From CAVQYV01 sp963718295 [NCBI: uncultured Methylomirabilota bacterium] (GTDB lineage Bacteria; Methylomirabilota; Methylomirabilia; CAVQYV01), in NCBI GenBank assembly GCA_963718295.1, contig CAVQYV010000006.1, positions 371,775 to 435,774 on the forward strand: 64,000 bases of DNA, written 5' to 3'. The translations under genes were made by a program, and so were the position numbers. The first letter of the stretch is position 1. The number at the start of each line of letters is the position of its first letter. Shown one piece after another: positions 2,671 to 56,484 of this stretch. The notes under the pieces were generated by a model. That model made no database searches and was not told the DNA's origin. It saw nothing but the letters and a program-made list of their open reading frames with translations.

Positions 2671-4875
2671 ATGAACATGCCAACAACTGTGCAGAATGAA
2701 AGGGATGATAGGTTGAAGGACTTCACCAGGCCCATACCGCAAGCTTTGCTCAACATCGAGGAAAAGAATAGATCGAATCTGTTCGCCTGGAGGGGTCAAT
2801 TCTCCCCTCAGCTCATTGAATGCCTGCTTGAGGCATATTGCCACGCGAACTCAGTGGTACTTGATCCCTTCGCGGGTAGCGGCACCGTCTTGTACGAAGC
2901 AGCCATTATGTCGCTGGCGGCTTTCGGGTTTGAGATAAACCCCTCAGCCTGGAGTTTTAGTAAGCTCTACGAATTCGCCAATGTACCGCGAGAGGCCAGA
3001 GATGCGTCCATCGCAGAACTTCGCAAAAGGATTGAAAAGGAATTCCCTATCATCATATTCTCGGATGATGAGGTGCCCATCGATGACGTAGAGGAGAAAA
3101 TCATCTCTATCGGAAATTCAATCAGCGACAGCGCGAAAATTCTGTGCAACGCCCTCGTGGTCTCGCTGGACATCTATCACAACCCAATATCGGGTAAGTT
3201 GGTTCAAGCCAAATTCGCGGCCCTTGCCGATTTGCTTCGCGGGTTGCCGTACTCCACCAGACCAATAAAGGCAGATTTGCAGGACGCGCGGGCTCTCCCA
3301 CTGCAAAGCCAGTCCATTGACTTTGTGGTCACATCACCACCTTATATCAACGTGTTCAACTATCACCAGAATTACAGGAAGTCTGTGGAGATTCTTGGGT
3401 GGGATCTCCTACGCGTCGCCCGGTCGGAGATTGGGTCAAATCGGGCTAACAGGGGCAACAGGTTCTTCACAGTCATCCAATACTGTATCGATATGGCCCA
3501 TGCTATTCAGGAGATGGCGAGAGTTCTCAAACCGAGTGGTCGAGCCGTCTTAATTGTCGGGCACGAATCGACAGTTCTCGGCGCGCCGTACTACAATGCT
3601 AATATCGTCGAACGGATCGCCTTACAGTCGGGCATGTTCGACATGTTGCTGCGGCAGAAGCGCATATTCACCAATCGCTTCGGCGATGCCATCCGAGAGG
3701 ACATCCTCAACCTACGTAGAGAAGCTTACACAACCGACGAGACAGCTATCACCGCTGTGGGCCGCATGGTGGCTCGGGAAGCACTCACCTCGGCATCACC
3801 CTCCGTCCCGGAGAAAAACCAAGCCCTACTTTCGGATGCAATCTCCCGCATTGACGAGATCAGGGGCACACCCACTTTCAACAGTGTCTCCTACGCCGAG
3901 TATCAGACAAGAGACTCCGTAATGATGGTAAAGGAGGAAGAGAAAACCCATATGAAACCAGATTCGCGGAAGTTGCCAACTCCCCATTTGGATAAGCTTA
4001 AAGCGCTCATAAACAATAGACGACTACCTGCAGCGGACAAGCCGAGGGTTGAAGAGGCACTCAAACGGTACCAAGACTGGATCAGAGAACTCGAGGCGGT
4101 GAGGGGCGGGCAGAAGGGAGCAGTACAGAAACTCGTCGATGCCACCAACCGCTACAAGATGTTTGTGGAATTGGATCTGATCTTCGACAGCCCTGGTGAT
4201 TTCCTTTACCGACAGAAGGGCCAACTGAAGCTGGACAATACTATTCTGGAGGAGTTTCTTCCGCAGTTGTTTTTTCGGGGCCTAAGCTTGGCAGAGAGCA
4301 CCTTTGAGCTGGGTCCCCGAAATAGTTTCGCGGGGTTAAGCTTCGGGTCATCCCTCGCCAATACCGGAATTGGCGGTCATCCAATCCTCAGAACCAAGGA
4401 TCAAGATTTTGTGCTAGGCAAGCGCCTGTACATGATGACCTCATTCGATAAGGACTTTCACGACGTGGAGCGCATCGAGTCCAACCTGGGATACGTATGT
4501 GCCGAGTGTAAGACTAACTTGGACAAGACCATGTTCCAGGAGGCCGTTGCAACGAGCCGAGACCTGAAAATTGCCGTGCCCTCCTCTCTGTATTTTCTTG
4601 TCTGCGAGTTCCTGGACATGACTCCCGTGTCAATCACGTCGACGCACATTGACGATGTCCTCATTGTGCGAAAAGCTAAGCGGATGTCCTCGAATATTCG
4701 CCAAGAATATAGAAACGCGAAGGAGAGACGAGGGCACCGGGACGAATACGTTCGCTTCCTTGGATCGGCGAAGTACTATGCCGATGTCTTCCAGCGCATG
4801 ATTGACAAAATTCAGCGTGTGATCGATGAGACAGGTCCGGAGTTGGAGACCGTTCTAAAGAAGGGCTACTTTTGA
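2671..4875 (+). CDS. Fused DNA methyltransferase-restriction endonuclease candidate
   Basis: The N-terminal ~340 residues are an amino-methyltransferase: SAM motif I DPFAGSGT at residues 65-72 and catalytic TSPPY at 221-225, the pattern of N6-adenine or N4-cytosine enzymes. After a linker, residues ~430-734 look like a type II restriction enzyme: the segment YVCAECKTNLDK has E612-C-K614, a plausible (D/E)xK catalytic pair, following hydrophobic strands. The part resembles the Bpu10I kind of endonuclease from memory, not from a search. A strong AAAGGAGG lies at ~3930 and an in-frame ATG at 3952 (residue 428) opens exactly at the second module, so a separate endonuclease could also be made. No separate methyltransferase or specificity gene adjoins it. 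Confidence 0.75.
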   Translation: MNMPTTVQNERDDRLKDFTRPIPQALLNIEEKNRSNLFAWRGQFSPQLIECLLEAYCHANSVVLDPFAGSGTVLYEAAIMSLAAFGFEINPSAWSFSKLYEFANVPREARDASIAELRKRIEKEFPIIIFSDDEVPIDDVEEKIISIGNSISDSAKILCNALVVSLDIYHNPISGKLVQAKFAALADLLRGLPYSTRPIKADLQDARALPLQSQSIDFVVTSPPYINVFNYHQNYRKSVEILGWDLLRVARSEIGSNRANRGNRFFTVIQYCIDMAHAIQEMARVLKPSGRAVLIVGHESTVLGAPYYNANIVERIALQSGMFDMLLRQKRIFTNRFGDAIREDILNLRREAYTTDETAITAVGRMVAREALTSASPSVPEKNQALLSDAISRIDEIRGTPTFNSVSYAEYQTRDSVMMVKEEEKTHMKPDSRKLPTPHLDKLKALINNRRLPAADKPRVEEALKRYQDWIRELEAVRGGQKGAVQKLVDATNRYKMFVELDLIFDSPGDFLYRQKGQLKLDNTILEEFLPQLFFRGLSLAESTFELGPRNSFAGLSFGSSLANTGIGGHPILRTKDQDFVLGKRLYMMTSFDKDFHDVERIESNLGYVCAECKTNLDKTMFQEAVATSRDLKIAVPSSLYFLVCEFLDMTPVSITSTHIDDVLIVRKAKRMSSNIRQEYRNAKERRGHRDEYVRFLGSAKYYADVFQRMIDKIQRVIDETGPELETVLKKGYF

Positions 4876-14876: not shown

Positions 14877-15125
14877 GCTAACCCAGAATGGTGGAGGCCT
14901 TGGCGTAGCCCTCTTCGAAACCCTTTGGCAAGGCCAATGGGGGCTGCGCGTTGGCCATGGGCAGATCGGCACCGATGTGCTTCTGGCCAACGCTGAGGCC
15001 ATCCTGCAGGCGTTTTTCCGTCTGATCCGCGCGGCACCTGCCCGAAGGGATCCGGCGGCGCAGCAGGGCTTGAAACGGGATCTTTGGGTCATAGGAGTTG
15101 ACAAGAGAAACGAGAGAGGCCGGCC
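14877..15125 (+). other. Open, coding-looking stretch before the permease
   Basis: One plus-strand frame is open from the promoter at 14848 to about 15146 and reads like protein, for example LRVGHGQIGTDVLLANAEAI and LKRDLWVIGVDK, but no plausible start codon with a ribosome binding site is seen and the family is not recognised. It may be the remnant of a gene whose 5' part is lost. It overlaps the permease start in another frame. Confidence 0.25.
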
Positions 15126-16409
15126 ATGGACATGCTGTCAGGTATTATAATGATTCTCGTCTACCTTGCCGTCGTGGTCTTCATCGTCCGGGGAGAGAGC
15201 CCGATCATCTCGCTCTTGCTCCTGGCCATCCTCTGGGCCGTCCTCTCCCGCGTCCCCGCCAAGGACATCCTGATCCAGATCCTGGATAAGGGTGGCACCG
15301 CCTATGCCAATGCGATCGTGATCATCGTCTTCGGTGCCTGGTTCGGCCAGGCCATGGTGCAGACGGGCATCGCCGAGAACATCATCCGCGGGGCCATCGA
15401 GCTGGCCGGGGATCGCCCGGTGATTGTCGCCATCGTGGTCTCGGTCGTCACCGGACTCCTCTTCACCTCCCTCTATGGAGTCGGCGCCGCCATCTCCATC
15501 GGCGTCATCGCCCTGCCCATCATGATGTCCATGGGCATTCCCCCCTGGGTCGCCGCCCCCGCCTTCACCATGGCCATCGGGGCCGGCAACTACGTGAACT
15601 TGGTGGAATTCAACATCTTCAAGCCCATGTTCCCCGGGATCGTCTACGATCAACCCTATCTCAAGTTCTATTTCGTGGGATGGGCCGTCTATCTCCTGGC
15701 CGCCTGCGCCATGTCCTTCTTCAACCTGAAGGTCCGGGGGACCCGGAAGTATTCCGCGGTGAGCGTATCTCCTCCTCCCCCTGCCCGTCCCCAAATCCCC
15801 TGGTATGCCTACCTGGCCCCGGCGGTTCCCGTGGTCATGGTGATCGCCTTCAAGTGGCCCATGATCCCGGCCTTCCTCCTGGGCATCCTCTACGCCCTGG
15901 TCTCCACCCACTTCGGCAAGCGGAGGATCCGCCAGAGCATCGACCTCTTCCACAAGACCTTCTACGACGCCTTCCCCGATATCGCCACCATCGCTGCCTT
16001 GTGGATCATCTGCGGCATGCTGATCATCTGCGGCCAACTCCCGGCCGTCCAGAAGGTGCTCAACCCCGTCTTCGGTCCCCTCCTGCCCCATACCCGCCTG
16101 GCGGCCGCGATCTTCTTTGCGGCCCTGGCCCCGCTGGCGATCTATCGGGGACCACTGGTAGTGGTGGGCACCGGGGCGGCCGTGCTCACCATGTTCTTGA
16201 ACGCCAAGGTGCTCTCGCCCCTTTATCTCTACTGTGTCTGGCGGGGGGCGCTCTCGCTTGCGGGAAGCCAGGACCCCACCAACTCCTGGACCCTCTGGAC
16301 CATCGGCTACACCAAGGTCACCCACCGACAGTTCCTCCAGACGGCGCTGCCCTGGGGCTGGCTGATGGTGGCCATCAACGCCTTTTTGGCCTACTTCATG
16401 GTGCCATGA
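15126..16409 (+). CDS. Ion-transporter-superfamily permease (copy 1)
   Basis: A 427-residue integral membrane protein with roughly eleven hydrophobic segments and the two-fold pattern of ion-transporter superfamily carriers (GntP, CitMHS, DcuC relatives): GAWFGQAMVQTGIAENIIRG lies in the first half, and WIICGMLIICGQLPAVQKVL in the corresponding second-half position. Likely imports an organic acid or cyclic amide. It directly precedes a hydantoinase/oxoprolinase gene (22-base gap), suggesting import of that enzyme's substrate. A near-identical second copy lies at 19334 on the other side of the hydantoinase, so the set is duplicated locally. Confidence 0.8.
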   Translation: MDMLSGIIMILVYLAVVVFIVRGESPIISLLLLAILWAVLSRVPAKDILIQILDKGGTAYANAIVIIVFGAWFGQAMVQTGIAENIIRGAIELAGDRPVIVAIVVSVVTGLLFTSLYGVGAAISIGVIALPIMMSMGIPPWVAAPAFTMAIGAGNYVNLVEFNIFKPMFPGIVYDQPYLKFYFVGWAVYLLAACAMSFFNLKVRGTRKYSAVSVSPPPPARPQIPWYAYLAPAVPVVMVIAFKWPMIPAFLLGILYALVSTHFGKRRIRQSIDLFHKTFYDAFPDIATIAALWIICGMLIICGQLPAVQKVLNPVFGPLLPHTRLAAAIFFAALAPLAIYRGPLVVVGTGAAVLTMFLNAKVLSPLYLYCVWRGALSLAGSQDPTNSWTLWTIGYTKVTHRQFLQTALPWGWLMVAINAFLAYFMVP

Positions 16410-19258: not shown

Positions 19259-19333
19259 TGTTTCCTGGGAGCGGAGGCCGTCCCGGGGCAAAGATCAACC
19301 AAAGGGCAAGGAGTGAAACAAGGGGAATAGGTT

Positions 19334-20616
19334 ATGGACATGCTGTCAGGTATTATAATGATTCTCGTCTACCTTGCCGTCGTGGTCTTCATCGTCCGGG
19401 GAGAGAGCCCGATCATCTCGCTCTTGCTCCTGGCCATCCTCTGGGCCGTCCTCTCCCGCGTCCCCGCCAAGGACATCCTGATCCAGATCCTGGATAAGGG
19501 TGGCACCGCCTATGCCAATGCGATCGTGATCATCGTCTTCGGTGCCTGGTTCGGCCAGGCCATGGTGCAGACGGGCATCGCCGAGAACATCATCCGCGGG
19601 GCCATCGAGCTGGCCGGGGATCGCCCGGTGATTGTCGCCATCGTGGTCTCGGTCGTCACCGGACTCCTCTTCACCTCCCTCTATGGAGTCGGCGCCGCCA
19701 TCTCCATCGGCGTCATCGCCCTGCCCATCATGATGTCCATGGGCATTCCCCCCTGGGTCGCCGCCCCCGCCTTCACCATGGCCATCGGGGCCGGCAACTA
19801 CGTGAACTTGGTGGAATTCAACATCTTCAAGCCCATGTTCCCCGGGATCGTCTACGATCAACCCTATCTCAAGTTCTATTTCGTGGGATGGGCCGTCTAT
19901 CTCTTGGCTGCCTGCGCCATGTCCTTCTTCAACCTGAAGGTCCGGGGGACCCGGAAGTATTCCGCGGTGAGCGTATCTCCTCCTCCCCCTGCCCGTCCCC
20001 AAATCCCCTGGTATGCCTACCTGGCCCCCGCGGTCCCGTGGTCATGGTGATCGCCTTCAAGTGGCCCATGATCCCGGCCTTCCTCCTGGGCATCCTCTAC
20101 GCCCTGGTCTCCACCCACTTTGGCAAGCGGAGGATCCGCCAGAGCATCGACCTCTTCCACAAGACCTTCTACGACGCCTTCCCCGATATCGCCACCATCG
20201 CTGCCTTGTGGATCATCTGCGGCATGCTGATCATCTGCGGCCAACTCCCGGCCGTCCAGAAGGTGCTCAACCCCGTCTTCGGTCCCCTCCTGCCCCATAC
20301 CCGCCTGGCGGCCGCGATCTTCTTTGCGGCCCTGGCCCCGCTGGCGATCTATCGGGGACCGTTTGCGGCCGTGGGAACCGGAGCCGCCTTGCTGGCGATG
20401 TTCTTGAACGCCAAGGCGCTCTCGCCCCTTTACCTGTACTGCGTCTGGAGAGGGGCTTTATGCCTCCAGGGAAGCCAGGACCCCACCAACTCCTGGACCC
20501 TCTGGACCATCGGCTACACCAAGGTCACCCACCGTCAGTTCCTCCAGACGGCGCTGCCCTGGGGATGGCTGATGGTGGCCATCAACGCATTTTTGGCCTA
20601 CTTCATGGTGCCATAG
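19334..20616 (+). pseudogene. Ion-transporter permease copy 2, single-base frameshift
   Basis: Nearly identical to 15126-16409 from its first codon to its last. One T is missing at about 20034 (GCGGTCCCG against GCGGTTCCCG), which shifts the frame after residue ~234; the remaining half is intact in another frame to 20616. Outside one block the copies differ at only about eight positions, whereas 20361-20470 has about 27 differences in ~113 bases against 16153-16262. The frameshift would leave only the first half of the carrier. It may be real inactivation of a redundant copy or an assembly/sequencing error in a repeat. Confidence 0.8.
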
Positions 20617-48840: not shown

Positions 48841-49824
48841 ATGACCATGCCGCGACAAGCTCGATTCGACGCACCCGGAACCCTTCACCATGCCATGATT
48901 CGAGGCATCGAAGGCCGACGGATCTTTGAAGGGGACGAGGATCGCGAGCATTTCCTCTCTCGGGTGCGCATCTTGGTGAAGGAGACCCAAACCCGCATCC
49001 TGGCCTGGGCGATCCTGGACAATCATGTCCACCTGCTGCTCTTCAGCGGCAAGGAAGGGATTTCCACCTTCATGCGCAGGCTGTTGACGGGCTATGCAAT
49101 CTGGTTTAACCGGAAGCATAGAAGGAGCGGTCATCTCTTTCAGAATCGATTCAAGTCCATCGTCTGCGAAAAAGACCCCTACTTGCTGGAGCTGGTCCGC
49201 TATATTCACCTGAATCCCCTGCGGGCCCAGGTGGTCAAAAGTGTGCAGGAGCTGGATCGCTACCCTTGGAGTGGCCACAGCGCCTTGGTGGGAAGGCATC
49301 CCAACGATTGGCAGGAAAAGGAATATGTGCTCGGGCAATTCAGCCCCGACCGGAAGAAAGCGATCCGCATCTACCACGAGTTCCTATCGGAGGGAAAAGA
49401 CTGGGGCAGACGCCCTGAACTCGTGGGAGGAGGGCTGATCCGAAGCCTGGGGGGCTGGTCGCAGGTCCTGTCCCTCGGAAGGAAAAGGGGAGAGATAGAG
49501 CACGATGCCCGCATCCTGGGGAGTGGCGATTTCGTCCAGGCCGTGTTGCAGGAAGCGGAGGAAAAGATAGCACGGCAGATACGGTATCAGGGTGGGAACG
49601 ACTCGGCTGCTGCAATCATCAAAAAGGCGTGCAAGGCAGAAGGCGTGAACGAACAGGAACTTCTGCGCGGTGGGCGAAGGAGGAAGGTGTCCCAGGTGAG
49701 GGCTCAGATCGCATGTCATCTGGCCCGAGAAATGGGACTTCCCATGGCCGAGATCGCCCGGAAGGTAGGCGTGGGGACATCAGCGATTGCGATGGCCATC
49801 CGAAAGGAAGAGGAAAGGGGATAA
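48841..49824 (+). CDS. REP-associated tyrosine transposase (RAYT)
   Basis: A 327-residue Y1-type HUH transposase: MPRQARFDAPGTLHHAMIRG is the RAYT start, DNHVHLLLFSG holds the HUH pair, KHRRSGHLFQNRFKSIVCEK and LELVRYIHLNPLRAQVV are family motifs. Residues ~230-327 add a helix-turn-helix tail like DnaA domain IV (REMGLPMAEIARKVGVGTSA). RAYTs are domesticated relatives of IS200 enzymes that act on REP repeats; here GAGGGGACG units flank the gene on both sides in inverse orientation. Start ATG 48841 (or 48847) follows AAGGG. Confidence 0.9.
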   Translation: MTMPRQARFDAPGTLHHAMIRGIEGRRIFEGDEDREHFLSRVRILVKETQTRILAWAILDNHVHLLLFSGKEGISTFMRRLLTGYAIWFNRKHRRSGHLFQNRFKSIVCEKDPYLLELVRYIHLNPLRAQVVKSVQELDRYPWSGHSALVGRHPNDWQEKEYVLGQFSPDRKKAIRIYHEFLSEGKDWGRRPELVGGGLIRSLGGWSQVLSLGRKRGEIEHDARILGSGDFVQAVLQEAEEKIARQIRYQGGNDSAAAIIKKACKAEGVNEQELLRGGRRRKVSQVRAQIACHLAREMGLPMAEIARKVGVGTSAIAMAIRKEEERG

Positions 49825-49968: not shown

Positions 49969-50715
49969 TTGGATATTCCACGGATCTTCAACATCACCGA
50001 AAGTGCTCACCGCATCCATAACCCGTTCACACCCGAAAAGCTCGCCACTCTCGGCGCGGCGCTGCGTCTGGAAACGGGAACCCGAGTGCTCGACCTCGGC
50101 AGCGGTTCGGGGGAGATGCTGTGCACCTGGGCACGCGATTACGGAGTCATCGGCACCGGCATCGACATGAGCCAGTTGTTCACCGAGCAAGCGAAACTCC
50201 GCGCTGAAAAACTCGGTGTCGCCGATCAAGTCAAGTTCATCCATGGCGATGCTGCCGGCTTCGTCTCTGACGAGAAGGCCGGTGTGGCAGCCTGTCTCGG
50301 TGCCACGTGGATCGCTGGGGGAGTCGTCGGCACCATCGAGCTTCTGGCGCAGAGCCTCCGCCCCGGAGGGATCATCCTCATCGGCGAGCCCTACTGGCGG
50401 CAGTTACCGCCGACGGAAGATGTTGCCAGGGGGTGTCTTGCCGGCTCAATCTCCGACTTTCTCCTGCTTCCAGAACTTCTCGCGTCTTTCGGCCACCTCG
50501 GCTACGACGTCGTGGAAATGGTTTTGGCAGACCAAGACAGCTGGGACAGATACGAGGCGGCCAAGTGGCTCACCATGCGCCGATGGCTTGAAGCCAATCC
50601 CGACGACGAGTTCGCGAAAGATGTTCGAGCCAAACTAACCTCGGAACCCGAGCGCTACGCCGCTTACACGCGTGAATACCTGGGCTGGGGCGTGTTCGCG
50701 CTGATGACGCGGTGA
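49969..50715 (+). CDS. Class I SAM-dependent methyltransferase (cassette gene)
   Basis: A 248-residue protein with SAM motif I VLDLGSGSGEMLCTWARDYG near residue 41, an acidic end of strand 2 (GTGIDMSQLF) and motif post I GDAAGF. The rest is a small substrate lid. It resembles ubiquinone/menaquinone-type methyltransferases; substrate unknown. The start is TTG with AAGGAG nine bases upstream. It lies directly after the broken attC half at 49898 and before the attC at 50762, the position of a cassette gene. Confidence 0.8.
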   Translation: MDIPRIFNITESAHRIHNPFTPEKLATLGAALRLETGTRVLDLGSGSGEMLCTWARDYGVIGTGIDMSQLFTEQAKLRAEKLGVADQVKFIHGDAAGFVSDEKAGVAACLGATWIAGGVVGTIELLAQSLRPGGIILIGEPYWRQLPPTEDVARGCLAGSISDFLLLPELLASFGHLGYDVVEMVLADQDSWDRYEAAKWLTMRRWLEANPDDEFAKDVRAKLTSEPERYAAYTREYLGWGVFALMTR

Positions 50716-50761: not shown

Positions 50762-50820
50762 GCCTAACAACTCATTCAAGCCGACGCCGCTTCGCGGCGC
50801 GGCTTAATTCAGGCGGCCAG
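50762..50820 (+). other. attC-type site
   Basis: GCCTAAC at 50762-50768, then AAGCCG-A-CGCCGC TTC GCGGCG-CGGCTT, a perfect stem with one extrahelical A, as in aadA-type attC sites. The right end (GGCCAGA) departs from GTTRRRY. Confidence 0.75.
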
Positions 50821-51164: not shown

Positions 51165-51260
51165 GGGGAGACCGGGGACACATCCCATTTTTCTCAAGGC
51201 CTCGCGGAAGAGCCAGGATGAGGATCGAATACGAATAAATGGGATGTGTTCCCCTTTTTT
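51165..51260 (+). repeat. 96-bp MITE-like direct repeat, left copy
   Basis: Contains GGGGACACATCCCATTT near its left and AAATGGGATGTGTTCCCC at its right end, so the unit folds on itself. The same sequence with about ten changes lies at 56316-56410 in direct orientation; the three-gene operon lies between. Confidence 0.85.
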
Positions 51261-51400: not shown

Positions 51401-51429
51401 TTGACTTGACAGGAGAAAGAATCTACACT
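51401..51429 (+). promoter_or_regulatory. Sigma70-type promoter of the three-gene operon
   Basis: TTGACT at 51401-51406, 17 bases, TACACT at 51424-51429, giving a start about 17 bases before the ATG at 51453. The interval 51261-51400 holds nothing else identifiable. Confidence 0.5.
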
Positions 51430-51452
51430 GCTCCCACAACAATCGGAACTCG

Positions 51453-52352
51453 ATGTACGCCTTTATCCGGGTTGGGTCTCTTATGAAGACTGAACCTTCC
51501 ACGACTCCTTTAGATCTCCAAGGGCTTGACGAGCTCATCCTGAAGGTCCTGTCCCGCGATCGATTTGGGTTAACCGTGGCTAAGATCCGCCGAGACCTTC
51601 CACCCGCCTATCGGGCCTCTGCCAAGCAGATAAATGCACGCCTAGACGTTCTTTTGGGAAAAGGCCTGATTCATGCCTGGCCTCCTTTCCATGAAACAGG
51701 TACCAAGCCAACTGCCCCGATTTTTTCTCTAGAACCTTTGGAACCATTGATTTCAGGCCAGATTGTCCAGTGGTTGAGCACCCAACCCCTTCCCCTTAGC
51801 GACGTCAAAAAACGACTTCCTGCACATGTCAGTAGGCATCTTGCTGTTTTCTTAGATCCTCTGTTGAAGAACAGAAAGGTTAAGCATCATCCTCCGCTCA
51901 AGGGAAAACGCCTGCTGAGTTTGATGGATCCGGATCCGGTTGGCTTTCTGGGTGCCGAACTCAAGAAGCTGTTCGCCAGGGGTATAAAGCTTGGTTTTTC
52001 GGGGGAGGCCGTCGCCCAGTCTGCCCAAAGGTATCTCAAAATCGAACAGCCTAAAGAAGTAGTCAGGAGCCCCGCGGAGATTGAAAAAATTATCTTCAAG
52101 GCAATGACCTTTCTCAAGCCTGCCGCAGCTCAAGGGGCCCTCGTCTATATTCCGGATCTCAGGCGAGCTCTCTGCGACATGTTCCCGGACAAGGATTCCT
52201 TTGACCGGGCAATCATCCATCTGGCAGAACTCGAAAAGGTTCAACTGCAGTCTCATTCTCTTCCTGCTGAACTCACGGATGAGGAAAAGGCTGCCATGAT
52301 CGATAACGGCCGTAGCAGCTACTTCATGGCCGTTGGAATCCGAATGGAATAG
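51453..52352 (+). CDS. Winged-helix-like protein of candidate defence operon (gene A)
   Basis: A 299-residue protein (or 289 from ATG 51483), no signal peptide. The N-terminal part (LDELILKVLSRDRFGLTVAK, INARLDVLLGKGLIHAW) and the C-terminal part (LVYIPDLRRALCDMFPDKDS, FDRAIIHLAELEKVQLQSHS) look like winged-helix domains; the end DNGRSSYFMAVGIRME is a wing-like hairpin. I do not recognise a family by name. It opens an operon with an ATPase (3-base gap) and a nuclease-translocase, so DNA binding or a specificity role is inferred. Ribosome binding sites are weak at both candidate starts. Confidence 0.7.
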   Translation: MYAFIRVGSLMKTEPSTTPLDLQGLDELILKVLSRDRFGLTVAKIRRDLPPAYRASAKQINARLDVLLGKGLIHAWPPFHETGTKPTAPIFSLEPLEPLISGQIVQWLSTQPLPLSDVKKRLPAHVSRHLAVFLDPLLKNRKVKHHPPLKGKRLLSLMDPDPVGFLGAELKKLFARGIKLGFSGEAVAQSAQRYLKIEQPKEVVRSPAEIEKIIFKAMTFLKPAAAQGALVYIPDLRRALCDMFPDKDSFDRAIIHLAELEKVQLQSHSLPAELTDEEKAAMIDNGRSSYFMAVGIRME

Positions 52353-52355
52353 ATC

Positions 52356-54362
52356 GTGCCCAAGGCTCAACCAACCCCTATTGCCCTCTCAGATATCCCC
52401 AATCCCTTCCTTCAAGATCGGGTCGACTCTCCCTGGCAGGAATCGTTTCCAGATGTTCCAGAGATCAACAGAGGCGCCTCCCAGAGCATTCAGAATTCCA
52501 TCACAGCCGTGTACCTGACCAACCAGTCCCGGGGACTCATCTTGCATGGAGAACCGGGGGCAGGGAAGACCCACCTGCTTCAGCGTCTTCGAGTTTTCAC
52601 CCAGCGGGATCCAAGGACCTGGTTCATTTACATCCCACCGTTCCCTGGTCCCAATCGCTTCTGGCGTCACCTTCTGGAATGCTTCTTCTACGACATCTGT
52701 CAGCGATCCAAGCAGTCCAACGCCTCTCGACCTTTAGCCCCTGACGAGACCACAAAAGCAGAAGGCCCTGGACAGGGGCCCATTACTCAGATCGAAGAGG
52801 CCTTGACCCGCCATCTCGTAGAAAAACCCTTGGAGACCACCCAGGGCCTGGCACGCTGGTGGGCTGAGATCTGCATCAAGGATTTTCCTGGTGAACCTCT
52901 CTTCCGTAGACTCAAGCCTACATTCGACCAATTGACGGTACGATTCCGTCTTGACCCTGATGTGATGAAAGTACTTCGCCACTATCTCTCCTGGAATCAT
53001 AGAGCCTCTGCCTATGCCTATCTGCTCGGGAGGGATCTGCCCGAAGAGGATCTCCAGTTGCTTGGCGTGAAGCAAAGCCTGGATGAGGAAGAACGGGCCA
53101 GGCAGGCCGTTCTCACCTTTTGTCGATTGGCAGGCCCGGCCTTTACGATCATTCTGGCCTTCGACCAAATCGAGGGGTTACAGCTTGTTCCCGAGGACTT
53201 CGATGGCCTTCGGACCTTCGCCAAGAATGCCGTCGATGTCATGTCCCAGTGTGGGAATCTCCTGATCCTCAGCGCCGTTCAAACGTATTTCCTTTCCGTG
53301 ATCGAGAAAGCCATGCACGGATCTTACTATCAGCGAATCGCCCAGGATGAATCCGTTTTGGAAATCCTAAAAAGGGAATCCGCAAAGAGGCTGATTGCAT
53401 ATCGTCTGAACTTCCGGAAAGATCTCGCTGATCTTCGAAGTTCCGATTCGAGGCGCGGACTTCTTTGGCCCTTTGCACCCGAGGAAATCGAAAGGCTGAT
53501 TCCGGTGGGGGGCCTGCCTGCCCGCGAGCTTATCCGGAAGGCAAGGCACCTTTTTGATGAGAAGAAGCAAGCTCCCGCTCCCCGGGCCGGGTCTCTCGCT
53601 GGACGCTGGGAGGAGGAGTTTGAGCGAGAGCTTAGCCGCCCTGTCACGCGGGTGGATGAGGGCGTATATGAAGACGGCTTACTGAAGCTCCTGCAAATCA
53701 AGCCTCCCAAGGGATGGCGCGTCCATCGAGGCAGGGAGAGGGACCTGCACGCCATTTTGGAAGGGGACAGTGAAAAGGTCGGAATCAGTATATCCAACTC
53801 GGAAAACATGACCAGCCTTGCCCACCAGCTGAGGCGCCTGCTGGACTTGATGGAAAAAAAGAGCGTGAGCAGGTTGATCTTCATAAGGGATAGGCGATTG
53901 CCTATCTCGGCTAAAGCGACTGTGACTCACCAAAGGCTTCAAGAGTTCGCCAAGACAGGAGGGCAGGTGATTCGGCCTCCAGCGGAGGCTTATGCGGCCC
54001 TTGAAGTACTCCAACAGCTTTGGAACAAGGCGGCTGAGAATGATCTGACGGTGGGCGATTCCAACGTATCTATGGGGGAACTGAAGAGATGGCTGGCTGA
54101 AAATACTCCACGGCCTTTGCAGGAGTTCATCGACGAGGTCTGCAAGGAGACGGCGGAGCCTCCTGCGGTTGACACCGGGGATCGTCTGCTGGAAATCCTG
54201 AGAGGCCGGTGGATCATTCCCTTAAATGAAACAGCGCAATATTTGGCTCTGCCCGAAGCCCTTCTGCGCCGCATTGTGGTTGAGACGGGGGAGGTAGTGG
54301 GATTCCTTGCCGGACCTCCGGCGGTCATCTTTTTGCTTCCTGATGCGATGAGCCGTTCATAA
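52356..54362 (+). CDS. P-loop ATPase of candidate defence operon (gene B)
   Basis: A 668-residue protein starting with GTG three bases after gene A. Walker A is G65EPGAGKT72, and FTIILAFDQIEGLQL near 263-277 is a Walker B with D270 and E273; NLLILSAVQTYF is a plausible sensor strand. The layout, with LGRDLPEEDLQLLGVKQSL before Walker B, is reminiscent of BREX BrxD/STAND-like ATPases. Residues ~480-600 (SRLIFIRDRRLPISAKATVT, TGGQVIRPPAEAYAALEVLQ) form a second alpha/beta domain, perhaps a nuclease-like fold without clear catalytic residues. Probably couples ATP hydrolysis to DNA recognition with the gene C translocase. Confidence 0.75.
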   Translation: MPKAQPTPIALSDIPNPFLQDRVDSPWQESFPDVPEINRGASQSIQNSITAVYLTNQSRGLILHGEPGAGKTHLLQRLRVFTQRDPRTWFIYIPPFPGPNRFWRHLLECFFYDICQRSKQSNASRPLAPDETTKAEGPGQGPITQIEEALTRHLVEKPLETTQGLARWWAEICIKDFPGEPLFRRLKPTFDQLTVRFRLDPDVMKVLRHYLSWNHRASAYAYLLGRDLPEEDLQLLGVKQSLDEEERARQAVLTFCRLAGPAFTIILAFDQIEGLQLVPEDFDGLRTFAKNAVDVMSQCGNLLILSAVQTYFLSVIEKAMHGSYYQRIAQDESVLEILKRESAKRLIAYRLNFRKDLADLRSSDSRRGLLWPFAPEEIERLIPVGGLPARELIRKARHLFDEKKQAPAPRAGSLAGRWEEEFERELSRPVTRVDEGVYEDGLLKLLQIKPPKGWRVHRGRERDLHAILEGDSEKVGISISNSENMTSLAHQLRRLLDLMEKKSVSRLIFIRDRRLPISAKATVTHQRLQEFAKTGGQVIRPPAEAYAALEVLQQLWNKAAENDLTVGDSNVSMGELKRWLAENTPRPLQEFIDEVCKETAEPPAVDTGDRLLEILRGRWIIPLNETAQYLALPEALLRRIVVETGEVVGFLAGPPAVIFLLPDAMSRS

Positions 54363-54371
54363 GGATAAGCA

Positions 54372-56231
54372 ATGCCATTGATTCTCACGGTCAGCGAAGT
54401 CCGCAGGGCGATCTATCTCGCTGCCGGGGGTCGGGAATCCTCCGGCCCCGGAGAGGCATCGAATCCCTTGTTGGGAAATCTCTTCCATAAGACCTTTCGA
54501 CTTCTGACTGGCCCCGATCCCACCTTTAATCTCGTTCGTCCGTTGGAACGGGCAGATCGGGCTCTGGCCTCCTGGGAAGCGCAGCTCATCGAACACGCCT
54601 ACCTCTGGTGCGTAGGCCCTCAGTTGGTGAGACACCAGGGCGAACTGCAATACTCCTCCCAGGAGGTACTCACCTACTGGGGGGCGGTAGAGAACCTCTG
54701 CAGGTGGCTCTGCAATGCGCTTCTTGAGCTCAGCCAGCCGTCTCAGGCCATTGAAGAGTTGCGAGCGTTCATCTTCGCCGACAACGAATTGGACTGCGAA
54801 GCCGCGCTGTCCGATCCCTCCTGGAAGGATACTGTAATCCTCCAAGGCCGAGTGGATGCGGTGCTCCGCCAGCCCGGCACCGGTCGGCTCTGTGCCGTGG
54901 AGCTCAAGCTGGGTCAAACCAGTCCACAGGCGGATCTCGCCCAGGCGTGCCTCTATCATTTGCTCCTGGCGAATCGCAAGCCCGCAGCAGACGTCCAGGA
55001 TCTGGCCCTGTGGACCTTTCGACCGGAGGCGCATGAGCGTGTCTGGAAGGCATCGGAGCTTGTGGAGGCGCAGGCTCAACTTAAAGATTTAGTCGGCCAA
55101 TTGGCGGGGGCCAAGAGCCAGGAGCCAAAAGAAGCCAGGCATCCAATTCCCGGCGTGGAACGGCAGCGGGAGGGAGAATTAAAAGAAATGGCCCATCGTC
55201 TTGTCAAGGCATTCCAAGAATTCAGGGCCCCCATTCAATTGGAAGGTCAACCGCTTGTGGGCCCAGCGTTCCATCGCTTCCTGGCCAAGCCAGCGCAAAG
55301 GGTTCCGGCTTCGAAAATCCTCAGCATGGCCACGACGATCTGGCCGCGACTGCGCGATTTAGGTGTCCAGGAGCCGCCGCAAATCGCCATTGAGCGAGGG
55401 CTAATCACGATCGATGTTCAGCGGCCCGATCGTCAAGTCGTCTACTGGAATTCCCACTTGGCTAAATTGTCTGGCGACCCCCCACAGGGAGTCTCCCGTT
55501 TTCCTGTGGGGATCGACATAGAAGGGAATTGGAGGTACGCTGACCTTGCCGAGCCCGAAGATTCCCATTTCCTTGTTGCCGGAACCACGGGGAGCGGCAA
55601 GACCGAATGGCTAAAGATGGTAGCCGGAAGCCTTTGTGTCGCCAACACGCCTGCCACGCTCGCCCTGCTCCTTATCGACCCCAAACGCACTGCCTTTTCT
55701 ATCCTGGCCGGCTCACCGTTTCTCAAAAGGCCAATCGTCTATCCGTCCGATGAGGATATCCTCTCAGTGTTGGATGCTTTGATTGAGGGAATGGAGACCC
55801 GTTTCAGCCTGTTTGAAGGCATTCAAGACTTGAGGCAATACAATGCCACTCGGCCCCATCCGCTTCCCAGGATCATTTGCATCTGTGATGAATACGCTGA
55901 TCTGATATTGGCGGATTCCAAAAGAGGGAAAGAGGTGGAGCGGAGAATTGCTCGAATTGGCGCCAAGGGCCGTTCGGCGGGAATTCACCTGATTCTGGCC
56001 ACCCAGAAGCCCAGCAGGGACGTGGTCAAAGGAGTGATCAAGGCGAATCTCAACGCCCGGGTGGCGCTCAAGGTGAATGAGAGGATCGACTCCCGGATCA
56101 TCCTGGATCAAGGCGGGGCAGAAACCTTATTGGGGAAGGGCGATCTGCTCTTCCGAGACCTCGGCCCCGCGATTCGGCTCCAATCCCCCCTCATTAGAGA
56201 CGAGGACCTCAGGCACGCCGCAAAGTGCTGA
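54372..56231 (+). CDS. RecB/Cas4-type nuclease fused to FtsK-type DNA translocase (gene C)
   Basis: A 619-residue protein. Residues ~30-200 carry a full RecB-family PD-(D/E)XK site: H39 (GNLFHKTF), G159-R-V-D162, E177-L-K179, and Q191xxxY195. Residues ~280-350 resemble the FtsK beta domain (VGPAFHRFLAKPAQRVPASK), and ~375-619 the FtsK motor: Walker A G404TTGSGKT411, IDPKR 435-439, Walker B IICICDEYADL with D506-E507, and ATQKP 543-547. So one polypeptide can cut and pump DNA. It lacks membrane helices and the gamma (KOPS-reading) domain of cell-division FtsK. Nine bases after gene B, with AAGGAT upstream. Confidence 0.85.
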   Translation: MPLILTVSEVRRAIYLAAGGRESSGPGEASNPLLGNLFHKTFRLLTGPDPTFNLVRPLERADRALASWEAQLIEHAYLWCVGPQLVRHQGELQYSSQEVLTYWGAVENLCRWLCNALLELSQPSQAIEELRAFIFADNELDCEAALSDPSWKDTVILQGRVDAVLRQPGTGRLCAVELKLGQTSPQADLAQACLYHLLLANRKPAADVQDLALWTFRPEAHERVWKASELVEAQAQLKDLVGQLAGAKSQEPKEARHPIPGVERQREGELKEMAHRLVKAFQEFRAPIQLEGQPLVGPAFHRFLAKPAQRVPASKILSMATTIWPRLRDLGVQEPPQIAIERGLITIDVQRPDRQVVYWNSHLAKLSGDPPQGVSRFPVGIDIEGNWRYADLAEPEDSHFLVAGTTGSGKTEWLKMVAGSLCVANTPATLALLLIDPKRTAFSILAGSPFLKRPIVYPSDEDILSVLDALIEGMETRFSLFEGIQDLRQYNATRPHPLPRIICICDEYADLILADSKRGKEVERRIARIGAKGRSAGIHLILATQKPSRDVVKGVIKANLNARVALKVNERIDSRIILDQGGAETLLGKGDLLFRDLGPAIRLQSPLIRDEDLRHAAKC

Positions 56232-56315: not shown

Positions 56316-56410
56316 GGGGAGACCAGGGACACACCCCATTTTTCTCAGGGCCTCGCGGAAGAGCCAGGATGAACATCCAATAGGAATAAATGGGATGTGT
56401 CCCCCTTTTT
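56316..56410 (+). repeat. 96-bp MITE-like direct repeat, right copy
   Basis: Direct copy of 51165-51260 with about ten changes, sharing the core CTCGCGGAAGAGCCAGGATG and the self-complementary ends GGGACACACCCCATTT and AAATGGGATGTGTCCC. Closes the region that holds the three-gene operon. Confidence 0.85.
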
Positions 56411-56424
56411 GCCCACCCCTTTTT

Positions 56425-56484
56425 GCCCAACGCTACGCCGGTTCCGTTGCACTCCACCGGCGAGGTTGAGGCGGGACGTTAGGC
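56425..56484 (+). other. attC-type site
   Basis: GCCCAAC (56425-56431) and GTTAGGC (56478-56484) are exact RYYYAAC and GTTRRRY ends; inside, CGCCGGT and ACCGGCG form the stem. Total 60 bp, in the normal attC range. Confidence 0.8.

What the first reader, a model, noticed from the sequence alone, without database searches (positions are those of the whole stretch)
51401..56231. Three-gene candidate DNA-processing defence system inside an integron
Seen: own promoter; gene A with winged-helix-like ends; gene B, a P-loop ATPase (GEPGAGKT, DQIE); gene C, a RecB-type nuclease fused to an FtsK motor; gaps of only 3 and 9 bases. Established: RecB/Cas4 nucleases and FtsK/HerA pumps occur in anti-phage and anti-plasmid systems (e.g. 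HerA-nuclease pairs, Dpt restriction), and integron cassettes are known to carry defence genes. Inference: A recognises DNA or a signal, B is a switch or loader, and C pumps and cuts. I know no named system with this exact order and fusion.
Basis: partly seen in the sequence, partly recalled or inferred. Interest (0 to 1): 0.88.

Follow-up and report, generated by a model that had tools for sequence, protein, structure and literature searches.

The report
Mobile three-gene DNA-pump nuclease module
Three neighbouring bacterial genes encode a DNA-binding protein, an origin-recognition-type ATPase and a nuclease fused to a DNA pump; the set appears to move between genomes as a unit and matches a class of anti-invader systems that others predicted in 2024 but for which I found no experimental test.

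Summary
Three co-directional genes lie at 51453-56231 with gaps of 3 and 9 bp. A is predicted to be three winged helices. B is an ORC/Cdc6/TnsC/BrxC-type AAA+ ATPase followed by a restriction-endonuclease-like domain without E-x-K in its strand, and a winged helix. C is a RecB/Cas4-type PD-(D/E)XK nuclease with intact motifs fused to an FtsK motor. The A-B-C order recurs in a cyanobacterial plasmid, a planctomycete and a deltaproteobacterial MAG. I file it as a member of that predicted class. Related loci put other motors behind the same nuclease type (HerA/VirD4; one RuvB-type case); RuvB, RecB and Cas4 are not named in that paper's main text. Against a simple defence story: neighbours match no more PADLOC families than control proteins, and the integron setting is a decayed array.

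The parts
51401..51429 (+). sigma-70-like promoter match (TTGACT-17-TACACT), not above chance
   Evidence: 3 found against 1.8 +/- 1.2 in shuffles
51483..52352 (+). gene A, likely start (an ORF start at 51453 is also open); predicted three winged helices at about 51516-51728, 51738-51920 and 52071-52340
52356..54362 (+). gene B, 668 aa, GTG start: ORC/Cdc6-type AAA+ with Walker A GEPGAGKT and Walker B FDQIE
52470..53567 (+). B: AAA+ domain, aa 39-404
   Evidence: model; folds like TnsC, ORC/Cdc6 and BrxC
53658..54035 (+). B: restriction-endonuclease-like domain, predicted inactive, aa 435-560
   Evidence: secondary structure; EcoT38I among Foldseek rows (aligned range not printed); no E-x-K at aa 472-481 in 10 of 10 and 12 of 12 rows
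54171..54335 (+). B: C-terminal winged helix, aa 606-660
54372..56231 (+). gene C, 619 aa: RecB/Cas4-type nuclease fused to an FtsK motor
54432..55085 (+). C: PD-(D/E)XK nuclease domain, aa 21-238 (G35xxxH39, D162, E177xK179, Q191xxxY195)
55161..55355 (+). C: weak FtsK-alpha match, aa 264-328 (E 0.015, below the Pfam cut-off)
   Evidence: clear in relatives L083 (5e-12) and L095 (5.5e-7)
55500..56231 (+). C: FtsK motor, Walker A GTTGSGK410T, Walker B ICICDE507
51165..51259 (+). 95-bp palindromic repeat, left copy
   Evidence: fold z -3.3
56316..56410 (+). 95-bp repeat, right copy, direct orientation, 92% identical
50762..50815 (+). attC-like site lacking its R' box
   Evidence: fold z -2.8
56428..56484 (+). 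weak attC-like site (R' GTTAGGC)
   Evidence: fold z -0.16

Best explanation
A-B-C is a mobile counter-invader DNA restriction module of the Orc/CDC6-coupled HerA/FtsK capture class. Most likely mechanism: A (three winged helices) and the C-terminal winged helix of B bind a feature of invading DNA. ATP-driven assembly of B, as in ORC/Cdc6, TnsC or BrxC, marks the site; its dead REase-like domain serves as a DNA or partner clamp. B then loads the FtsK ring of C on the double-stranded DNA. C pumps the DNA and its RecB/Cas4-type domain cuts it as it is reeled in. Self DNA is spared because loading needs the A/B-recognised feature or state, not a base modification: the three genes include no methylase. 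Shown here: gene order, domain content, catalytic motifs, recurrence, and one clear case of movement as a block. Inferred: complex formation, loading, cutting of invader DNA, self/non-self rule.
For: C: PDDEXK_1 and FtsK_SpoIIIE; nuclease motifs GxxxH, GxxD, [ED]xK and QxxxY in 13 of 13 C-type rows aligned (third motif with E in 10, D in 3). B: AAA_16/AAA_22; model pLDDT 84.9 with AAA+, REase-like and winged-helix parts in that order; Foldseek ORC/Cdc6 7.7e-5, BrxC 1.6e-4, EcoT38I 5.7e-3; VIA Z 17.0 for TnsC (243 residues, rmsd 3.7), 16.5 for Cdc6/ORC, 15.1 for BrxC. A: model pLDDT 85, three winged helices. Co-conservation: of 38 B genes at E <= 1e-10 in the loci I fetched (four of them are rows of the model itself), 22 have an A-family gene directly upstream, 13 a C-family gene directly downstream, and 3 are fused to an FtsK motor. 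Mobility: at E <= 1e-10 B is in 1 of 8, 2 of 33 and 2 of 17 genomes of three families; a 4,591-bp block at 83.1% identity covering A-B-C is the only DNA match between L082 and L083; the motor of L114 groups with L093 and a planctomycete (100/99), while that of G001, from the same family as L114, groups with the window (99/98). Same domain list in PMC10853773.
Against: Neighbours are not enriched for defence genes: 99 neighbour proteins matched 50 PADLOC families, 99 control proteins 67. PADLOC-DB gives no model hit to A; C hits SspH, mad8 and HerA models at the motor and Cas4 models only weakly (7.9e-4) at the nuclease. No relative was confirmed in three scans of viral contigs, and in 226 phage records that match C no place covers 80% of it. 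Of the 38 B genes, 22 show neither a C-family neighbour nor a fused FtsK motor (L091 among them is cut by its contig end and does start a C gene), so B probably works in other settings too. No activity is known.
Confidence: 0.68

Rival explanations
1. A DNA-end-processing or repair module: B loads C at breaks or stalled forks and the RecB/Cas4-like domain resects, like HerA-NurA or AddAB.
For: RecB/AddB/Cas4-family nuclease on a double-stranded-DNA motor; some loci lie among what read by eye as core genes, and neighbours show no defence enrichment.
Against: Patchy within families (1 of 8, 2 of 33, 2 of 17), moves as a bare A-B-C block in one pair, fast-evolving A (14-28% identity to the window outside the two closest relatives).
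Confidence: 0.15
2. A maintenance or transfer module of a mobile element (ORC/TnsC-like ATPase plus FtsK pump) that helps the element segregate or transfer.
For: B folds like TnsC and MuB as well as ORC; one copy is on a conjugative cyanobacterial plasmid; 95-bp repeats bracket the window copy.
Against: The block shared by L082 and L083 holds A, B and C only, no recombinase gene; nuclease motifs are conserved in 13 of 13 rows.
Confidence: 0.1
3. Abortive-infection system: C cuts the host chromosome once A/B sense infection.
For: The three genes include no modification enzyme, so self DNA is not marked; B has weak matches to NACHT and STAND NTPase models besides its ORC-like fold.
Against: A dedicated double-stranded-DNA pump fits processive degradation of a captured molecule better; no toxin domain found.
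Confidence: 0.07

Closest known systems
Orc/CDC6-coupled HerA/FtsK capture systems (Rakesh, Aravind and Krishnan 2024, PMC10853773)
   Same: Orc/CDC6 AAA+ with an inactive REase between AAA+ and C-terminal wHTH, active REase, FtsK (some with FtsK-alpha), extra multi-wHTH protein, mobile neighbourhoods
   Different: The nuclease here is RecB/Cas4-type (PF12705) fused to the motor; the main text says the active REase is of one of two families and names neither RecB nor Cas4 (0 occurrences). Figure 7 and the supplement could not be read, so the same loci may be among theirs.
SspFGH (PMC8092258, passages seen)
   Same: Three genes, one with Walker A, one with a C-terminal FtsK-like motor; C matches the SspH model C-terminus at 5.4e-51
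   Different: The match is confined to the motor; the two SspH models are 1561 and 1766 aa long; no Ssp or Dnd model is among the families shown for 10 window proteins (the other window ORFs were not scanned)
DndFGH
   Same: DndG is a triple wHTH, DndH a REase plus HerA/FtsK
   Different: DndH is about 1700 residues with a constant multidomain core; C has 619 residues
BREX-Related Capture systems (PMC12839542, passages seen)
   Same: ORC/Cdc6 AAA+ with HerA/FtsK and DNA-binding wHTH
   Different: Seven components including PglZ, GNAT and TGT, which are not part of this triad
MADS Mad8
   Same: C motor and B ATPase match mad8 (1.4e-27 and 2.9e-4)
   Different: The triad has no other Mad match. 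The SAM methyltransferase gene upstream (49969-50715) hits mad2 at 4.5e-17, aligned to mad2 positions 273-400 of 492, which I read as a shared methyltransferase domain

Membership tests
Orc/CDC6-coupled HerA/FtsK capture systems | Orc/CDC6-family AAA+ ATPase | tested here: met
   AAA_16/AAA_22 at 1e-7; model folds like ORC/Cdc6
Orc/CDC6-coupled HerA/FtsK capture systems | Inactive REase inserted between AAA+ core and C-terminal wHTH | tested here: met
   Secondary structure aa 435-560 then winged helix 606-660; EcoT38I match (aligned range not printed); no E-x-K in the strand aa 472-481 in 10 of 10 and 12 of 12 rows, with an E-x-K triplet just before it in L091 and L114. Predicted, not solved; this domain was not folded or searched alone.
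Orc/CDC6-coupled HerA/FtsK capture systems | Active REase of one of two families | tested here: inconclusive
   A nuclease with intact motifs is present; whether it is one of the two families of Figure 7 could not be seen
Orc/CDC6-coupled HerA/FtsK capture systems | HerA/FtsK motor, in part with FtsK-alpha | tested here: met
   FtsK_SpoIIIE 3.3e-30; FtsK_alpha 0.015 in the window (below cut-off), 5e-12 in L083 and 5.5e-7 in L095
Orc/CDC6-coupled HerA/FtsK capture systems | Rapidly evolving gene with 2-4 wHTH domains (a subset of the systems) | tested here: met
   A model with three winged helices. Kinship with DndG or FokI in particular was not shown.
Orc/CDC6-coupled HerA/FtsK capture systems | Mobile gene neighbourhoods | tested here: met
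SspFGH | Homology to SspH over its length, and linkage to PT modification genes | tested here: not met
   Match limited to C aa 339-617 against SspH 1470-1762; none shown for 10 window proteins
Anti-phage defence system (any) | Protects cells from phage or plasmid | not testable with these tools
   needs the bench
Integron gene cassette | Unit bounded by recombination-competent attC | tested here: inconclusive
   Flanking attC-like sites degenerate

The most novel reading that the evidence does not exclude
The module is a general 'load, pump and cut' platform: a recognition and loading pair (multi-wHTH protein plus ORC/Cdc6 ATPase with a dead REase) paired with a RecB/Cas4-type nuclease whose motor is interchangeable (FtsK, HerA/VirD4 and even a RuvB-type AAA+ ring), giving modification-independent restriction that tells self from invader by DNA state or loading site. 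The RuvB version would be a new kind of restriction motor.
Probability: 0.3. Interest if true: 0.68.

Novelty: new member of a known kind. Interest (0 to 1): 0.46.

Why it matters
The Orc/Cdc6-coupled capture systems were proposed from sequence alone. This compact three-gene form, with a mobile unit of about 4.6 kb seen in L082/L083, clear catalytic residues and homologues whose motors differ, is a convenient object for testing whether an origin-recognition-type ATPase can load a nuclease pump on invading DNA, and how such a system spares its host without a DNA modification.

Tried and rejected
Viral contigs: three scans with C, the C pair alignment and the B pair alignment gave no confirmed relative. 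Phages: 226 records match C, no place covers 80% of it; of the 15 rows shown, those with annotation are FtsK-like proteins. Plasmids: B of the window finds one weak record; L001 was found through C. Genome scan with the C pair alignment: two loci.

Defence-island idea: tested with 99 neighbours of 12 loci against 99 control proteins and not supported. The neighbour list had 103 proteins of at least 130 aa; I left out 4 that sit in the A position (in L095, L079, L083, L082). The control list had 141; I gave 99, leaving out loci L130, L131 and L133, part of L132 and four others, some of them very long. Family counts are crude, because one protein can match many models: 24 of the 50 families on the neighbour side are matched by one ZorD/DpdE-like helicase in L001.

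Family counts: the family of G002 holds one genome only, G002 itself, and is not used. The search in the family of G277 used a single protein, so distant B genes would be missed.

RuvB-type third gene: one case only (L077). Its B finds no genome other than its own among 392, and 0 of 395 in the other phylum; tblastn of the whole protein in plasmids gives 48 records, none covering 80%, and the eight rows shown cover only the RuvB part. The 95-bp repeat was not found in 85 genomes of the class of G001, which shows little.

Motor tree: 19 rows used of 22 prepared; L003, L138 and L139 fell out because the Walker pattern was not found. The split of the C-type motors from cellular FtsK is weak (66/82), and L095 lies on the other side of it. 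The fold search of A gives generic winged-helix proteins; FokI and DndG were not among the rows listed. Of ten large neighbouring proteins scanned, six carry nuclease plus motor (the HerA_C match of L075 is below the Pfam cut-off) and four do not (two without any family, one sulfatase, one patatin; these may be unrelated neighbours).

Papers: PMC10853773 abstract, sections 19, 21, 22, 26, 27 and one passage; PMC12839542, PMC8092258, PMC5704561 and PMC11090510 passages; PMC13092281 searched for six terms with none found; others as search listings only. That no experimental test is in print rests on the searches in an open-licence library.
Full report
What is there. Three + strand genes follow one another with gaps of 3 and 9 bp: A 51453-52352, B 52356-54362, C 54372-56231. 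Orthologues suggest that A starts at 51483.

Recurrence. A tblastn with C led to a conjugative plasmid of Pseudanabaena PCC 7367 with three genes of the same order and similar size; B is 22% identical over 545 aligned positions and C 36% over 380; A is not found by blastp and is matched only by alignment of its C-terminal part. A genome scan gave a Deltaproteobacteria MAG (62% over the aligned part of C) and Planctomycetales bacterium 10988 (43%); both have A, B and C in order, the former with C split over two contigs. A B profile then matched 46 of 392 genomes of the phylum of G002 and 43 of 395 of the phylum of G001 at E <= 0.001, many of them short ATPase-only matches. Among the 40 places I fetched from these plus window, L001, L007 and L114, 38 B genes reach E <= 1e-10, four of them rows of the model itself: 22 have an A-family gene directly upstream, 13 a C-family gene directly downstream, and three are B-FtsK fusions (simple ORF calling, neighbours of at least 120 aa within about 350 bp). 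So the A-B pair is wider than the triad, and C is one of its partners.

Folds. The model of A (pLDDT 85, seven sequences) is three winged helices. The model of B (pLDDT 84.9, twelve sequences) has an AAA+ domain, an alpha-beta domain of REase-like order and a C-terminal winged helix. Its best fold matches are TnsC, ORC/Cdc6 and BrxC, and EcoT38I restriction endonuclease is among the Foldseek rows (E 5.7e-3). The strand that should carry E-x-K reads GISISN, GVSLCN or the like; E-x-K is absent there in 10 of 10 and 12 of 12 aligned rows, though L091 and L114 have such a triplet just before the strand. The domain is therefore probably dead. C has the RecB/Cas4 motifs GxxxH, GxxD, [ED]xK and QxxxY in 13 of 13 C-type rows. 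The four cysteines typical of Fe-S nucleases of this family (the label is recalled) are present in 4 of the 12 rows long enough to show them (L001, L095, L075, L105) and absent from the window. Pfam lists no match of C to the FtsK gamma domain or the membrane part.

Motor exchange. Behind the same nuclease type other loci carry a HerA/VirD4-like motor (L105; also L075 by a HerA_C match below the cut-off) and in one case (L077) an AAA/RuvB_N/RuvB_C motor. The RuvB case is a single example.

Mobility. At E <= 1e-10 B is present in 1 of 8, 2 of 33 and 2 of 17 genomes of three families. L082 and L083, from two genomes of one family, share one block of 4,591 bp at 83.1% identity; it covers A-B-C from near the start of A to the end of C, and blastn and blastp find nothing else in common between the two regions at 1e-5. 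In a tree of motors, the copy of G803 (L114) groups with L093 and the planctomycete L007 (100/99), while that of G001, from the same family as G803, groups with the window (99/98). This points to horizontal transfer, though old duplication and loss is not excluded.

Against a plain defence-island story. With PADLOC at 1e-8, 99 neighbours match 50 families and 99 control proteins 67. By eye, some loci sit among core genes. In the window the surroundings are a decayed cassette array with a Y1_Tnp transposase gene (1.4e-10), an IS110 transposase and an integrase relic, and the attC-like sites beside the triad are poor.

What is known. PMC10853773 (2024) describes neighbourhoods with an Orc/CDC6 AAA+, an inactive REase between AAA+ and wHTH, an active REase, a HerA/FtsK motor in part with FtsK-alpha, and in a subset a gene with 2-4 wHTH domains, and proposes that the ATPase localises the apparatus while the motor intercepts and feeds the DNA. 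The triad meets these features where I could test them; whether its nuclease is one of the paper's two active families stays open. RecB, Cas4, RuvB and integron are not mentioned in the main text, but Figure 7 and the supplement were out of reach. PMC12839542 extends the theme to BREX-related capture systems. I found no experimental test. SspFGH is an analogue in layout, not a family: the resemblance found is limited to the FtsK motor.

Mechanism. The most economical reading is recognition by A and the winged helix of B, ATP-dependent assembly of B on that DNA, loading of the C ring, and processive pumping with cutting. Everything after domain content and motifs is inference. How the host is spared without a modification gene is open; loading restricted to a site or DNA state found on invaders is my guess.

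Verdict. The new elements are the compact nuclease-motor fusion in this setting, a clear case in which the three genes travel as one block, and hints that the motor is exchangeable.

Noticed in passing
window 2671-4875: A 734-aa fusion of a DNA methylase (N6_N4_Mtase) with a Bpu10I-type restriction endonuclease (PF09549, 1.1e-92), 47 kb from the triad: an apparently separate restriction-modification gene.
   Followed up: partly
L077 5862-7709: Nuclease (PDDEXK_1) fused in one ORF to a RuvB-type AAA+ motor with RuvB_C, in the third position behind A and B.
   Followed up: partly
L080 9076-12234, L086 8764-11832, L089 6189-9260: B-type ATPase and FtsK motor fused in one protein of about 1020-1050 aa, with a gene in the A position upstream.
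   Followed up: partly
L102 6383-12032: Four-gene set: ODP/metallo-beta-lactamase plus flavodoxin protein (406 aa), 165 aa, 217 aa, and a 1078-aa AAA plus HerA-like protein; gene sizes similar in L099, whose genes were not scanned.
   Followed up: no
window 48841-49824: Y1_Tnp (RAYT-like, label recalled) transposase gene with a DnaA-type C-terminal domain match just below the Pfam cut-off, near the palindromic 95-bp repeats that bracket the triad.
   Followed up: partly
window 15104-16126 and 19312-20333: Two families of 300-nt repeats (97-100% identical) whose copies lie about 4.2 kb apart, unexplained.
   Followed up: no
L082 5392-5940, L093 1207-1951, L079 7238-7745: Small gene pairs that look like HEPN-MNT or YefM-YoeB toxin-antitoxin pairs near the module; read by eye, not by a call (listed).
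   Followed up: no
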